DNA of 37,383 nt. Origin: Candidatus Poribacteria bacterium. Lineage in GTDB: Bacteria > Poribacteria > WGA-4E > WGA-3G. Positions 1,243 through 6,034 of this stretch are shown here, piece by piece. A program made the translations under genes and the position numbers. Below the pieces are notes generated by a model. That model had not been told where the DNA came from. It saw only the letters and a program-made list of their open reading frames with translations, and made no database searches. The number at the start of each line of letters is the position of its first letter. The stretch's first letter is position 1. The stretch lies in the NCBI GenBank assembly GCA_022822275.1, contig JAJEBZ010000203.1, positions 1-37,383 on the forward strand, written 5' to 3'.

Positions 1243-1896
1243 TTACAACAAGTCTTTTGCCTTCAAGATTCGTCCAAAGTCCTTTTTCCAACTCGGTGAT
1301 AGAGCTGGCAGTTTTCTGGCTTTCGCTATCTTCTCATAATTGTTTGTGTCAAAATATCGTAAGTTGACTATCTCCGTAACACTCATTGACTCTGGCGTAT
1401 TCTCAACACAAGAAATTGCATCACCAGCAGTGATTTCTCCCTCTTGCAGAACCCGAAAATAGAAACCTACACGCCGACTCTCCAAGAACTGTTTAGGAAA
1501 TTCTGCCATCCCCATTTTGTATCCTAATTTGAAGCATGGCACTCGCGGCTGTGTAATCTGTAGTCGCACCCTTGTACCTATCTGAAACACATCACCGATG
1601 TTAACTTCCGATTCCAGCATACCCTCAACAGTCAGATTTTCACCGAATTGACCAAAAGACAAATCTTCTCTATTCAATTCCTGCTGCCAATATGCATAAT
1701 GTTCAAAGGGATACCCATAAATAGCTTTATATGTACCACCGTGTACCTTCAAATCCCCTTGCCCGTCACCATCAATATTTTTCTCTCTCAGCAGCACCGT
1801 CCCTGACACCGGTTCTTTAAAAATACCAGTATAAACAATCCTACCATTGTAGGTAATTGGTTTCGGTTTTGATACATTTATGGATAGGAGTTTCAT
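1243..1896 (-). CDS. MOSC domain protein (YiiM-like)
   Basis: A 217-residue protein with the MOSC (molybdenum cofactor sulfurase C-terminal) beta-barrel fold. Supporting motifs are [17 protein letters not shown] around 47-63, [10 protein letters not shown] around 84-93, GDVFQIG around 101-107, and the conserved MOSC cysteine Cys121 in [10 protein letters not shown]. The sequence after the barrel ([15 protein letters not shown]) is typical of the YiiM family, which in E. coli helps detoxify N-hydroxylated base analogues together with molybdenum cofactor. Its substrate here is unknown. The ATG abuts the lpxD stop, and a plausible ribosome site (AGAAGAG) lies inside the lpxD 3' end, so translation is probably coupled to lpxD. 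Confidence 0.85.
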
Positions 1897-2955
1897 CTAA
1901 GACTCTTCTTTCAAGTCTTGAAGTTTTGCCTCAAGCTTCTCAATGCGTTTCTGGAGCTCTGTGATCTCTTTCATCACTTCCGGCAGTTTACGTGCTGTTG
2001 CTTGAGAACGTAACTCCTGTTTGTGCGGACGGGCAGGGATGCCGGACAGATGACTACCGGGCGGAATGTTTTTCGTGACAGCAGATTTCGAGTAGATAAC
2101 TGTATTTTCACCAACCTTAAGATGACCAATCACGCCAGACTGCCCCGCAATATTTACCCTGTCACCAAGCATAGTACTGCCAGCGATACCGGTCTGTGCA
2201 GCGAGGCAACAATCCTCCCCGAGTACAACATTGTGTGCAATCTGAACAAGGTTGTCAAGTTTCGTGCCACGCTTAATCACCGTTTCAGCAAGTGTTGCTC
2301 TATCTATCGTCGTATTCGCGCCTATTTCGACATCGTCCTCAATCACAACGGTACCAATTTGGGGTATTTTGTAAGGACGTTTTTGTATAGGATCCGGCGT
2401 AAAACCAAAACCATCACTACCGATGACCGCACCGCTATGAAGTATGACACGATCTCCAATAGTGATGTCTTCACGAATACTGACTTGAGAGTAGACCAAA
2501 CCATCACTGCCAATTTTACTACCGCTCCCCACATAGACAAGCGGCATAATGACTGTTCTATCGCCAATCTCAACATTATCACCAATGACAGTATATGCCT
2601 TTATGGTTACGTCTTCTCCTAAGACGACATTCTCTCCAATAATCGCAGTTTCATGGATACCGCGTTGAGTCTGCTGCACCGAATCCGATATGAATAACTC
2701 CATGACCTTGACAAAACTCCAATACGGATTGTCAACACATATCGTTGGCTTACCATTACCGGAAACCCCGTGCCCAATGATGATCGCCGATGCCTGAGTC
2801 GTGGCTATAGCAGAAAGGTATTTCGTATCCGCAACAAAGGTAATTTGGCTGGGGACCGCCTCCATAATACCCGAAACACCTGTGATTTCGATCTCACCAT
2901 CACCGGTTAGTTCACCCTCCAAATGTTCGCAAATATCTTTGAGTTTTATATTCAT
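1897..2955 (-). CDS. lpxD: UDP-3-O-acylglucosamine N-acyltransferase LpxD
   Basis: Catalyses the third step of lipid A synthesis, transferring a hydroxyacyl chain from ACP to the 2-amine of UDP-3-O-acylglucosamine. The 352-residue protein has the N-terminal uridine-binding domain (about 1-100), a long left-handed beta-helix of hexapeptide repeats (about 101-310), and a C-terminal charged helix likely to form a coiled coil (EVMKEITELQKRIEKLEAKL). The catalytic His is His241 in NLVQIAHNVVLGE. Length fits the family (about 340). Its presence implies an LPS-type outer membrane. In many diderms lpxD directly follows skp; here a three-gene module lies between them. Confidence 0.95.
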   Translation of the reverse strand: MNIKLKDICEHLEGELTGDGEIEITGVSGIMEAVPSQITFVADTKYLSAIATTQASAIIIGHGVSGNGKPTICVDNPYWSFVKVMELFISDSVQQTQRGIHETAIIGENVVLGEDVTIKAYTVIGDNVEIGDRTVIMPLVYVGSGSKIGSDGLVYSQVSIREDITIGDRVILHSGAVIGSDGFGFTPDPIQKRPYKIPQIGTVVIEDDVEIGANTTIDRATLAETVIKRGTKLDNLVQIAHNVVLGEDCCLAAQTGIAGSTMLGDRVNIAGQSGVIGHLKVGENTVIYSKSAVTKNIPPGSHLSGIPARPHKQELRSQATARKLPEVMKEITELQKRIEKLEAKLQDLKEES

Positions 2956-3132
2956 ATCTACCTCATCGCGGAATTCTCCAGAATATTTGTATCAGTTACA
3001 TAGCAGCAAACAGAAATTATTAACTCAATCATATTTGTGGACTTACACCTTGAGAAAACTGAGTTGTAATGAGGGTCATTGTTTTGAACTATGCCACAAA
3101 ACACAATGATCGTAGATAAAGTATTACAGTAC

Positions 3133-3249
3133 ATCTCATAAATCATAATATCACACCTTCATTGTAGGGGCGAGGTTACCTCGTCCCTATATAGAAAGGG
3201 CCTTCTAAACGGGCGGAGAGACCCCGCCCCTACAAGTGATTTATGAGAT
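3133..3249. repeat. 117-bp MITE-like palindromic element upstream of lpxD
   Basis: Terminal inverted repeats of 13 bp, ATCTCATAAATCA (3133-3145) and TGATTTATGAGAT (3237-3249), enclose inner inverted arms TGTAGGGGCG (about 3163-3172) and CGCCCCTACA (about 3225-3234). The whole element could fold into a long hairpin. It has no coding capacity and resembles a non-autonomous transposon derivative. It fills much of the 336-bp gap between lpxD and the upstream module; the rest of that gap is A/T-rich without a gene. Confidence 0.7.
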
Positions 3250-3291
3250 ACGCTCTAATATTATTACTCAAGACTTAATTACGACCATTAA

Positions 3292-3774
3292 TTATTCATT
3301 TGAAGATGGCTTTATCCTCAATCCATTATTCTCGTTTACAATATCTTTGAGACACTGCCTTAACTGTCGCTGAGCTTTTTTGGACCTACTAGGTCCTACA
3401 AGTTCTTCTAAATTTTGTTTTGGGTTCATAATGATTAATGCATGAGCTTTGTTAAATGGATTAGCATCGTGTATAACATTAATATCATGATCTATTATAC
3501 CATTGTGATTTTCTATACATATATCCTTTACCTTACCAGTGATAAAACCAATAACACCATCTGAAGGAATTCTTTTAGTTTTCTCTGGCTTAAAACAGTT
3601 AATACTCGCCACATCTGCTGATAAGTGTTTACCTGCGACAAATGCGGCAGATTGGATTATTATTTCGCCAGATGGCAACTCTCTGTAATGATCATCCTTT
3701 GAAGGTTTATTTTTATTCGCTTTAATCCACCTATATAACTCTTCATTATCACTTACATCTTTGGAATTATTCAT
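3292..3774 (-). CDS. Conserved hypothetical protein, third gene of the TIGR04255 module
   Basis: A 160-residue soluble protein without signal peptide or membrane segment. I see a pattern I associate with partners of TIGR04255-family genes: an N-terminal DNEELYRWIK, a segment LPSGEIIIQSAAF (around 29-41), a middle GVIGFITGKVKD, and a late HALIIMNPKQ followed by a Lys/Arg-rich helix (KKAQRQLRQCLKDIV). No enzymatic motif is evident and I do not assign a function. The start overlaps the stop of the preceding gene by 8 bp (ATGAATAA arrangement), which indicates translational coupling. Base composition is visibly A/T-rich compared with the flanking lpxD and skp genes. Confidence 0.7.
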   Translation of the reverse strand: MNNSKDVSDNEELYRWIKANKNKPSKDDHYRELPSGEIIIQSAAFVAGKHLSADVASINCFKPEKTKRIPSDGVIGFITGKVKDICIENHNGIIDHDINVIHDANPFNKAHALIIMNPKQNLEELVGPSRSKKAQRQLRQCLKDIVNENNGLRIKPSSNE

Positions 3775-4294
3775 TAATTAGCCATTCCCATACTTCTTTA
3801 TAATTGTATCTATTAAGTAATCCTGATCTTGCAATGGTTTTTTTGCCATCTCTCCATACCTTTGTGAACTCTGCAATTTGATTTTCTATTTCAAAATACA
3901 AAGTTTTACCGCTATTACGCCACTCTATAGATACACAATTGTCCTCGTTGATATGAATAAATGGGGTATCTACGGAATATTGACCAATATTTACATATAA
4001 AGCGAACTCTTCCATGATTTCTTTTGCATGACTTATATCGCTAATCGGTGGATCCTCACATTGCATTAGTTTGTCAATATGAACCAATATTGGATTAAGC
4101 AAAGAACTATTATCAATATTGTCGTTAATTCGACTCGGAATCGGTTCAAGAAATTTCTTGATTCCTGAATTCAGATGATTACTATCATTACTTAATTCAT
4201 TATTGGTTAGATCTATGTCTGGCACACCGACTATCATTACCACAGAATCTGTATTTGTTATTAACGGTTCAAGTCCAGGAACATATATCCGCAT
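3767..4294 (-). CDS. Hypothetical protein, second gene of the TIGR04255 module
   Basis: A soluble protein of 175 residues from the start used here. Its C-terminal half has the pattern PFIHINEDNCVSIEWRNSG then LYFEIENQIAEF, resembling a small conserved domain in proteins encoded next to TIGR04255 genes; the function is unknown to me. The start is uncertain. The ATG at 4294 lies 7 bp after the upstream stop. An ATG at 4393 (208 residues) has a better ribosome site (GAGGAG, 7-bp spacing) but would overlap the upstream gene by 92 bp; an ATG at 4351 is also possible. The stop overlaps the next gene by 8 bp. Confidence 0.65.
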   Translation of the reverse strand: MRIYVPGLEPLITNTDSVVMIVGVPDIDLTNNELSNDSNHLNSGIKKFLEPIPSRINDNIDNSSLLNPILVHIDKLMQCEDPPISDISHAKEIMEEFALYVNIGQYSVDTPFIHINEDNCVSIEWRNSGKTLYFEIENQIAEFTKVWRDGKKTIARSGLLNRYNYKEVWEWLINE

Positions 4295-4301
4295 ATGATA
4301 A

Positions 4302-5087
4302 TCAGACAATCTTTGTCCTAAGTCTATCTGTAATGCTCCACTCAAAGGCATAGCAATAGTTCTGTAAGAATAAGTCGTAGAACTTAAAGACATCTTGAAT
4401 CTCCTCTATACTTATCTCTATGAAACAATCTATATCAATAAAATAAGACATTTGATTATTTAATTGGATCTGACCGTATATACCAGATGCAGTAGTTATT
4501 GCATACAATACATTCATCCCAACTTCACCGTCATTTAATATGTATCTTCTATTTAAGGATTTAATTTCATCTGCATTAGTTTGCTTTAATTCTGGGAAAA
4601 TATATTTAGGTATAAAGGACATAATATTTTCATTAGTTATATTAGGTATATTAATTTCGTTTACTATGTTTCTATGTCTGAGACCGATACGAGTAAAATG
4701 TGAGAAATTATAAATTCTATCAAATACATCTAAAACTTTATTCAATCTTTCTCTAAATTCATTACCTTTATTGTAAGATCCAAAATGTGTAAGTGAAATT
4801 GAATCTTTTGAAAGATTAACCTGGTACGGTCTCTTGCGATCTGTAGAAGCGAAAATGTAGGTATTTAGTAATTCTGGTAGATCACCAAGATCTGGCTTAA
4901 AGATATCTTGAACGGGGGATGCGTTAATAGCAAAATTGGGATATCCTTGATATCTCATATCAGATTGGAAATCCGTAGGTGTTTCATTAGATATTTTTAA
5001 AAGATCAGGAAATCGAGCTTCAAATATAATCTCAAACAGTAAACTTTTTTGATATTCTTGCATTTGCTGATGCCCAAAAAAATTCAT
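4302..5087 (-). CDS. TIGR04255 family protein
   Basis: A 261-residue protein recognised as TIGR04255, a sporadically distributed family of unknown function. Diagnostic parts are LLFEIIFEARFPDL near the N-terminus, a central NFSHFTRIGLRHRN, and the C-terminal FEWSITDRLRTKIV. No signal peptide or transmembrane segment is seen. The start at 5087 is preferred to a TTG at 5093 because AAGGTGA is spaced about 7 bp from it. It is the first gene of a compact three-gene operon with its own promoter (5326-5354). Patchy distribution, A/T-rich composition and insertion inside a conserved gene cluster are consistent with horizontal acquisition. A defence or conflict role is possible but not shown. Confidence 0.8.
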   Translation of the reverse strand: MNFFGHQQMQEYQKSLLFEIIFEARFPDLLKISNETPTDFQSDMRYQGYPNFAINASPVQDIFKPDLGDLPELLNTYIFASTDRKRPYQVNLSKDSISLTHFGSYNKGNEFRERLNKVLDVFDRIYNFSHFTRIGLRHRNIVNEINIPNITNENIMSFIPKYIFPELKQTNADEIKSLNRRYILNDGEVGMNVLYAITTASGIYGQIQLNNQMSYFIDIDCFIEISIEEIQDVFKFYDLFLQNYCYAFEWSITDRLRTKIV

Positions 5088-5108
5088 AATCAAATCACCT
5101 TTTATGAC

Positions 5109-5256
5109 TATAACCTAAGTAGAACAATCTTCCAGATAGTGTCGTCCGAGCACAAACTGAAAGTTTATGCTACAAAATATCTGCCGATTATCAGCATTTT
5201 TTCATTAAAGACAGCATTTCCAAGTCTAAAACTTATAGGCAGCAACTTGGGTTATA
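5109..5256. repeat. 148-bp MITE-like element in the leader of the TIGR04255 module
   Basis: Inverted terminal repeats TATAACCTAAGT (5109-5120) and ACTTGGGTTATA (5245-5256) match at 11 of 12 positions. Inside, GAGCACAAACTGAAAGTTTATGC (about 5136-5158, split here as GAGCACAAACT and AGTTTATGC) is a degraded copy of the palindrome family found upstream of skp. No coding capacity. Because the promoter lies upstream, the element would be transcribed as part of the 5' leader. Confidence 0.6.
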
Positions 5257-5325
5257 ATATAGCATTTTGAATATTTTCAACCAATAAAGCCTTGCTATAA
5301 CAAACTGTATTCTCTTTGGAAATTT

Positions 5326-5354
5326 ATAATACTATACTATAATTTAATTGTCAA
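5326..5354 (-). promoter_or_regulatory. Sigma-70-type promoter of the TIGR04255 module
   Basis: On the minus strand the sequence reads TTGACA (5354-5349), a 17-bp spacer, and TATTAT (5331-5326). The -35 is a perfect consensus and the -10 matches 5 of 6. It lies just downstream of the skp terminator and about 240 bp before the first module gene, leaving a long leader that contains the 148-bp element. Confidence 0.65.
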
Positions 5355-5380
5355 CAAAGTGTTTCATGACACATTACACG

Positions 5381-5405
5381 AAAAACTAAGTCCAAAACGA
5401 CTTAG
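5381..5405 (-). terminator. Rho-independent terminator after skp
   Basis: On the minus strand: stem CTAAGTC, loop GTTTTG, stem GACTTAG, then TTTTT. The perfect 7-bp stem with an immediate T-run, 18 bp after the skp stop, is a textbook intrinsic terminator layout, though the stem is not GC-rich. It separates the bamA-skp transcript from the TIGR04255 module. Confidence 0.7.
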
Positions 5406-5423
5406 CGTGATTATTTATGCTCA

Positions 5424-6011
5424 TCATTTGTCTTGTGACGGGACTTTGGTATTGTCCTCTTTCGCATCAGACTCGTCTTGTTTAGCTGCATCATCCTTTT
5501 TTGCATCTTTATTGATAGCTTTAATTAGTTTGTCGGTCATATCATACTTCTCATTCATAAAGAGCACGGCTTGTTTACTGAGAATAAGGTCGTACTTTTC
5601 AGCTTTACCTGTTTCAATAATCAGTTTCTCAATGTCCTTAAAAATCGGTTCTAATAGTTCCTTCTCCTTTTGTAGAAGTGCTTCCCGACCCCGATTGAGT
5701 TCTTGTTGGGCTTCCAACTGTTTTTTTCTAATATCCTCCTCTAATTCAGCAGTCTGTGCTTCCTCAACAAAAAGTTCTGTTTTCTCTTTTCTCTCTTGTA
5801 ACGTAGTGATTTCCTTACCCATAGCATCAAGTTTCTCTTTCAAACGCGCTTGAGCTGCATTCAGTAACTTATCCGCTTCAATATATTTTTCATAATTTTC
5901 CAACACTTTCTGTGTGTCTACAACACCTATTTTGAACATTTCTTGACTAATGCTACTGGATATGAACACAATCAGCATCAATGGGAAAGCAACTAACAAA
6001 AATTTCTTCAT
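5424..6011 (-). CDS. skp: Periplasmic OMP chaperone Skp/OmpH family
   Basis: A 195-residue secreted protein that should hold unfolded outer-membrane proteins on their way to the BAM complex. A signal peptide covers about residues 1-23 (KKFLLVAFPLMLIVFISSS). The mature protein starts with the family pattern FKIGVVDTQKVLENYEKY, followed by long charged helices (ARLKEKLDAMGKEITTLQE...) forming the tentacle coiled coils, and YDLILSKQAVLFMN late in the domain. The C-terminal 25 residues are Lys/Asp-rich and look disordered, making the protein slightly longer than E. coli Skp. The ribosome site AAAAGGAT precedes the ATG by 8 bp. It follows bamA, as in many diderms, but with 444 bp of repeats between them. 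Confidence 0.9.
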   Translation of the reverse strand: MKKFLLVAFPLMLIVFISSSISQEMFKIGVVDTQKVLENYEKYIEADKLLNAAQARLKEKLDAMGKEITTLQERKEKTELFVEEAQTAELEEDIRKKQLEAQQELNRGREALLQKEKELLEPIFKDIEKLIIETGKAEKYDLILSKQAVLFMNEKYDMTDKLIKAINKDAKKDDAAKQDESDAKEDNTKVPSQDK

Positions 6012-6034
6012 AATATATCCTTTTATTTAATGTA

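What the first reader, a model, noticed from the sequence alone, without database searches (positions are those of the whole stretch)
3292..5354. Autonomous three-gene TIGR04255 module placed between skp and lpxD
Three tightly packed, A/T-rich genes (7-bp gap or overlap, then 8-bp overlap) have their own near-consensus promoter (5326-5354), are insulated from skp by an intrinsic terminator (5381-5405), and are bordered on both sides by MITE-like elements (5109-5256 and 3133-3249). They interrupt a skp-lpxD pair that is adjacent in many diderms. TIGR04255 is sporadically distributed and of unknown function; from memory the two following small proteins recur with it. The set behaves like a mobile, self-contained functional unit, possibly a defence or conflict system.
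Basis: partly seen in the sequence, partly recalled or inferred. Interest (0 to 1): 0.68.

Follow-up and report, generated by a model that had tools for sequence, protein, structure and literature searches.

The report
Mobile three-gene conflict module, TIGR04255 type
A compact set of three co-translated genes of unknown function has inserted between two cell-envelope genes of a Poribacterium; the same set recurs in unrelated bacteria, and the way its parts are lost suggests a toxin-and-antidote style conflict system with an added sensor protein.

Summary
Three overlapping minus-strand genes (TIGR04255 protein P0001; P0002; P0003) lie in a 2.5-kb A/T-rich insertion that splits skp and lpxD. 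The insertion is private to this genome: 15 relatives with the skp-lpxD junction, one ~93% identical in DNA, lack it. The same ordered triad occurs in Poribacteria, Nitrospirota, Nitrospinota, Pseudomonadota and Actinomycetota. It sits beside ssrA and an integrase in Rhodanobacter; related TIGR04255 triads with other partners sit on conjugative plasmids. TIGR04255 is the constant first gene; genes 2 and 3 come in interchangeable pairs. In Poribacteria, gene 2's C-terminal domain survives repeatedly when TIGR04255 or P0003 is lost (P0003 missing or broken beside an intact gene 2: 17 places; the reverse: at most 1), under purifying selection. That asymmetry, plus an Xre-like helix-turn-helix middle gene in the plasmid class, suggests gene 2 is an antidote/regulator, gene 3 a harmful effector and TIGR04255 a trigger or sensor. 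Restriction-modification genes are enriched near related triads but were not recognised here. The two flanking repeats are real, but are unrelated genome-wide families and no evidence of mobilisation. No activity, target or defence role is shown. Mechanism confidence about 0.4.

The parts
2976..5447 (.). Inserted segment (approximate ends) absent from the sister genome; it replaces ~80 bp between skp and lpxD and changes the last codons of skp
   Evidence: blastn against L077: window 1800-2975 and 5448-6028 align at 92-94%, nothing between
4302..5087 (-). Gene 1: TIGR04255 family protein, 261 aa; predicted alpha/beta fold with weak AdoMetDC/TBP-like resemblance
   Evidence: NCBIfam 67.5 bits; model pLDDT 80; Foldseek E 4e-4 but TM only 0.29; dN/dS 0.17-0.24 in relatives
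3767..4393 (-). Gene 2: P0002, 208 aa; leader overlapping gene 1, fast-evolving linker, conserved C-terminal ~100-aa domain (called WDG here after the DNWDG motif of most relatives; this copy lacks the motif itself)
   Evidence: domain dN/dS 0.12-0.25, linker 0.48-0.58
4401..4407 (-). Shine-Dalgarno (AGAGGAG) of gene 2, inside the gene 1 coding sequence
3292..3774 (-). Gene 3: P0003, 160 aa; conserved AAF..S(V/A)D.A and AHA.I motifs; no matching solved or viral fold found
   Evidence: (pLDDT 87); dN/dS 0.08-0.32 in relatives
5326..5354 (-). Promoter-like site TTGACA-17-TATTAT
   Evidence: class not above chance
5385..5406 (-). Intrinsic terminator after skp, inside the inserted segment
   Evidence: terminator-like sites 5 found, 1.0 expected; lies within the segment absent from L077
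3122..3260 (.). Repeat element A with 24-nt inverted ends (MITE-like)
5113..5259 (.). Repeat element B, a different genome-wide repeat family, between promoter-like site and gene 1

Best explanation
The set is a horizontally acquired three-component conflict module. Shown: one ordered, overlapping operon, recurrent across phyla, inserted here at a single site. Inferred: gene 2 is the antidote/regulator, acting through its conserved C-terminal domain. Gene 3 is a growth-inhibiting effector held by gene 2. TIGR04255 is the sensor or trigger subunit that makes release conditional, possibly engaging gene 2's fast-evolving linker. The nested starts (gene 2 inside gene 1, gene 3 overlapping gene 2's stop) would keep the products in proportion. 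After loss of TIGR04255 the remainder would act as a two-gene toxin-antitoxin-like pair; after loss of gene 3, a solitary antidote remains. The biological pay-off (phage defence, or addiction by the mobile element) is not determined.
For: Order and overlap conserved in Poribacteria, a Methylococcales MAG, Nitrospirota, Nitrospinota, a betaproteobacterium, Rhodanobacter and Rubrobacter. Loss pattern: 10 intact WDG domains have no detectable gene 3 and 7 have a broken one; intact gene 3 without intact WDG at most once (L024); class I TIGR04255 never seen without WDG. Some lesions are internal deletions of gene 3 that spare gene 2 (L215, L219), and several pair-only loci fuse the first codons of TIGR04255 in frame to gene 2. 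Because gene 2 is central and survives loss on either side, operon polarity alone does not explain this. Retained genes are under purifying selection. In a plasmid-class triad the middle gene carries an HTH_19 helix-turn-helix and weakly matches Xre/MqsA antitoxins. Neighbouring ORFs: type I specificity 7 of 63 and type IIG 8 of 63 (possibly overlapping sets), against 98 control ORFs with no specificity family among the 25 listed and 1 IIG hit. Conjugative plasmids; ssrA and integrase. Orphan antitoxins are abundant in Klebsiella (PMC7192599).
Against: No toxic, enzymatic or binding activity is shown; neither small protein matches a family or solved structure by sequence. Loss counts are not fully independent (shared sites and ancestry); lesions judged distinct by eye number about 12-14. 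Solo WDG might have another role. dN/dS of solo copies partly reflects history with gene 3. No defence gene was recognised in the ORFs of this window. The R-M-associated loci mostly belong to a sister class with a different gene 3, and are partly orthologous.
Confidence: 0.4

Rival explanations
1. Reverse polarity: TIGR04255 is the harmful effector and genes 2+3 form its control or immunity pair, which lingers as orphans after the effector is lost.
For: TIGR04255 is the part most often missing while genes 2+3 persist under purifying selection, and in this class it is not seen without gene 2.
Against: Gene 3 is also lost repeatedly with gene 2 kept. Across classes TIGR04255 is constant while the pair varies, unlike typical effectors. 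Its predicted fold resembles no known toxin.
Confidence: 0.2
2. A non-conflict accessory module, for example a stress- or metabolite-sensing regulatory complex, spread by ordinary gene transfer; losses only reflect dispensability.
For: No known toxin or nuclease domain in the class I proteins. This copy lies among housekeeping genes. Vertical retention at one site in many species.
Against: One-sided loss of gene 3, presence on conjugative plasmids and at an ssrA integration site, R-M neighbours, an Xre-like middle gene in the sister class.
Confidence: 0.25
3. A pure addiction module that stabilises the mobile elements carrying it, without a defence role.
For: Plasmid and integrative-element locations of related triads, repeated decay on chromosomes, and the antidote-like persistence of gene 2.
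Against: Enrichment beside R-M genes fits defence islands as well or better. A third, constant component is not needed for simple addiction.
Confidence: 0.15

Closest known systems
NCBIfam TIGR04255 (sporadTIGR04255, function unknown)
   Same: Gene 1 is a clear member (67.5 bits, cut-off 30, nearly full length)
   Different: The NCBIfam entry is a single protein family; no description of a three-gene operon was found in the literature searched (no paper names it)
Type II toxin-antitoxin systems with Xre-type antitoxins (MqsA, RES/Xre)
   Same: Small overlapping operon, antidote-like persistence of one partner; in a plasmid-class triad the middle gene has an HTH_19 domain with weak Xre/MqsA antitoxin matches
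   Different: Three components; no known toxin or antitoxin family in this copy; class I gene 2 gives no HTH match; neutralisation untested
Three-component toxin-antitoxin systems (such as those predicted in PMC2701414; and toxin-antitoxin-chaperone systems, from memory)
   Same: An extra gene accompanies a toxin-antitoxin-like pair
   Different: TIGR04255 is not matched to a protease or chaperone family, and is constant while the pair varies
Restriction-modification loci of defence islands (type I, type IIG)
   Same: Shared neighbourhoods in several Poribacteria
   Different: No restriction or methylase component in the module; none recognised near this copy

Membership tests
TIGR04255 | Score above the curated cut-off, full length | tested here: met
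   67.5 bits vs 30, profile positions 2-250 of 252
Type II toxin-antitoxin system | Two small co-operonic genes, overlapping | tested here: met
   8-bp overlap of genes 2 and 3; pair persists without gene 1
Type II toxin-antitoxin system | One partner kept without the other, not vice versa | tested here: met
   17 places vs at most 1; events not fully independent
Type II toxin-antitoxin system | Recognised toxin or antitoxin family | tested here: not met
   No Pfam, NCBIfam or PADLOC match for genes 2 and 3 beyond chance
Type II toxin-antitoxin system | Toxicity neutralised by the partner | not testable with these tools
   Needs expression assays
Anti-phage defence system | Located in defence islands or mobile elements | tested here: inconclusive
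   Enriched R-M neighbours for the wider set, plasmid and ssrA sites; not so for this copy
Anti-phage defence system | Protection in a phage challenge | not testable with these tools
   No experiment possible
Composite (MITE-flanked) transposon | Same element at both ends | tested here: not met
   Flanking repeats are unrelated families; no target duplication noticed by eye

The most novel reading that the evidence does not exclude
TIGR04255 is the constant first component of an undescribed, modular family of three-gene conflict systems across several phyla, in which interchangeable antidote/effector pairs (WDG + AHA protein, helix-turn-helix + SQSCD protein, others) are coupled to one shared sensor.
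Probability: 0.4. Interest if true: 0.72.

Novelty: new variant of a known kind. Interest (0 to 1): 0.52.

Why it matters
TIGR04255 is a sporadic family with no assigned role. Placing it as the constant member of recurrent triads, with a testable assignment of antidote and effector from the loss pattern, turns it into a concrete candidate class of conflict or defence system that can be assayed in laboratory strains. The evidence is comparative only, so the interest is moderate until an activity is shown.

Tried and rejected
MITE-driven mobilisation: rejected, since the two flanking repeats are different families. Known function by sequence: Pfam, NCBIfam and PADLOC gave only TIGR04255, and PDB profile searches gave nothing significant. 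P0003 fold searches in PDB and viral libraries: nothing convincing. P0001 fold search: AdoMetDC/TBP-like at E 4e-4 but TM 0.29, kept as a weak lead. Viral contigs: no relatives of P0001 or P0003, with a search that reaches close relatives only. Plasmids: no P0003 relative, but many TIGR04255 triads of other classes. Literature on TIGR04255: none found. Homology of class I and class II genes 2 and 3: only suggestive by profile comparison (single-pair E 4e-4 and 5e-3, low probabilities).

Full report
Observation. Three minus-strand genes lie between skp and lpxD: TIGR04255 (5087-4302), P0002 (4393-3767) and P0003 (3774-3292). Gene 1 scores 67.5 bits against TIGR04255 (cut-off 30); genes 2 and 3 match nothing convincing in Pfam, NCBIfam or PADLOC. 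Gene 2 very probably starts at 4393: that ATG follows AGAGGAG inside gene 1, and class I relatives in several phyla have a start at the corresponding place, many after a purine-rich stretch. The true overlap is therefore 92 bp, not a 7-bp gap. Genes 2 and 3 overlap by 8 bp.

The site. In the 15 relatives where both genes are on the fetched stretch, skp and lpxD follow one another without an insert; in L090 the contig cuts the site. The sister genome G007 (L077) aligns up to 2975 and from 5448 at 92-94% identity and has about 80 bp in place of the 2.47-kb insert. The insert is 32.6% G+C against 40.2% for the window. It brought the terminator (5406-5385) and replaced the last codons of skp. No minus-strand terminator-like site lies between gene 3 and lpxD, so lpxD may now be read from the module (inference). 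Element 3122-3260 (24-nt inverted ends) and element 5113-5259 are each multicopy, but belong to different families; they do not form a composite transposon.

Distribution. P0003 relatives occur in 26 of 98 related genomes, often several per genome, almost always preceded by the C-terminal domain of P0002, and in about ten loci by TIGR04255. Named records show the lineage is Candidatus Poribacteria and add a Methylococcales MAG, Nitrospirota, Nitrospinota, Chloroflexota, Betaproteobacteria, Cupriavidus, Rhodanobacter and Rubrobacter. Complete triads in the same order are in L161, L172-L175, L185, L188 and L189. In the P0003 tree the Nitrospirota, Nitrospinota and Methylococcales rows group with a Poribacteria sequence, and the two copies of the window's own genome fall in different clades, which fits horizontal transfer. 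In Rhodanobacter the triad follows ssrA and a tyrosine integrase (integrase recognised by eye; ssrA).

Modularity. TIGR04255 is found in 27 of 85 genomes of the phylum and in the loci examined is nearly always the first of three genes. The pair behind it varies: P0002/P0003 type; a ~130-aa SVYRIS type with a similar middle domain (homology only suggestive); a SQSCD/TQTCD type; a HEPN-like type by eye. On plasmids of cyanobacteria, actinobacteria, rhizobia, Vibrio and Acinetobacter the triad is TIGR04255, a ~200-aa protein (often with a helix-turn-helix) and a ~280-aa SQSCD/TQTCD protein; most of these plasmids are typed conjugative or mobilisable. The one middle gene tested against Pfam (Vibrio) has HTH_19 above cut-off and weak Xre and MqsA antitoxin matches. 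A Rhizobium conjugative plasmid has a further version beside a multiubiquitin/ThiF/DUF6527 cluster. L017 and L157 have another first gene before the same pair.

Loss pattern. At one orthologous site (CotH-Uma2-[module]-dehydratase) four species have the full triad, about nine only genes 2+3, and others gene 2 with a broken or missing gene 3. Several pair-only loci fuse the first codons of TIGR04255 in frame to gene 2, by more than one junction. Over the phylum, comparing the gene 2 domain with gene 3: 10 intact gene 2 domains have no detectable gene 3 and 7 have a broken one, while intact gene 3 without intact gene 2 occurs at most once (L024; L223 is cut by a contig end). In L215 and L219 gene 3 is internally deleted with gene 2 intact. 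A sign test on 17 vs 1 gives about 1e-4, and on about 12 distinct lesions vs 1 about 3e-3 (by hand; relatedness not corrected). Since gene 2 is central and survives loss on either side, polarity alone cannot explain it. dN/dS is 0.12-0.25 for the gene 2 domain, 0.08-0.32 for gene 3, 0.17-0.24 for TIGR04255 in Poribacteria and 0.48-0.58 for the gene 2 linker; comparisons involving solo gene 2 domains give 0.04-0.30.

Neighbourhood. In 63 ORFs (at least 150 aa) near 16 Poribacteria TIGR04255 triads, 7 match type I specificity subunits and 8 type IIG enzymes (the two sets may overlap). Among 98 control ORFs from an arbitrary set of regions, one matches IIG and no specificity family is among the 25 listed. 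The loci are not all independent, and several belong to the SVYRIS class. No defence gene was recognised by eye in this window.

Structure. P0003 folds confidently (pLDDT 87) but matches no solved or viral fold convincingly. P0001 (pLDDT 80) gives AdoMetDC/prozyme and TBP as best matches (E 4e-4 and 1e-2) with low TM-scores: a weak hint of a duplicated alpha/beta fold. P0002 was not folded.

Mechanism. The best-supported reading is a tripartite conflict module: gene 2 antidote/regulator, gene 3 effector, TIGR04255 trigger. The operon, its recurrence, its insertion here and the loss asymmetry are shown; the roles are inferred.

Noticed in passing
window 2955-5447: The insertion separates lpxD from bamA-skp, alters the skp C-terminus and adds a terminator after skp; lpxD may now depend on the module's promoter.
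   Followed up: partly
L050 (own genome contig 316): A second TIGR04255 triad in the same genome with different partners (155 aa, and a 191-aa SQSCD protein).
   Followed up: partly
L034 (own genome contig 270): A second gene 2 + gene 3 pair without TIGR04255, next to a nucleotidyltransferase-HEPN-like protein (by eye).
   Followed up: partly
L093, Rhizobium sp. CB3060 plasmid pCB3060_2: A TIGR04255 triad with other partners directly beside a multiubiquitin/ThiF/DUF6527 ubiquitin-like cluster; the last gene has a GLTCATYV motif that looks like a cysteine-peptidase site (by eye).
   Followed up: partly
L017 5748-6386 and L157 4441-5115: An unrelated first gene (IIGGWN..I..P.WIGRH motif) replaces TIGR04255 before the same gene 2 + gene 3 pair.
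   Followed up: no
window 3122-3260 and 5113-5259: Two abundant short repeat families of this genome, each with about 20 or more copies.
   Followed up: partly
L018, L038, L041 gene 2: The gene 2 linker contains imperfect tandem repeats of roughly 55-60 residues (by eye) and evolves fast.
   Followed up: no
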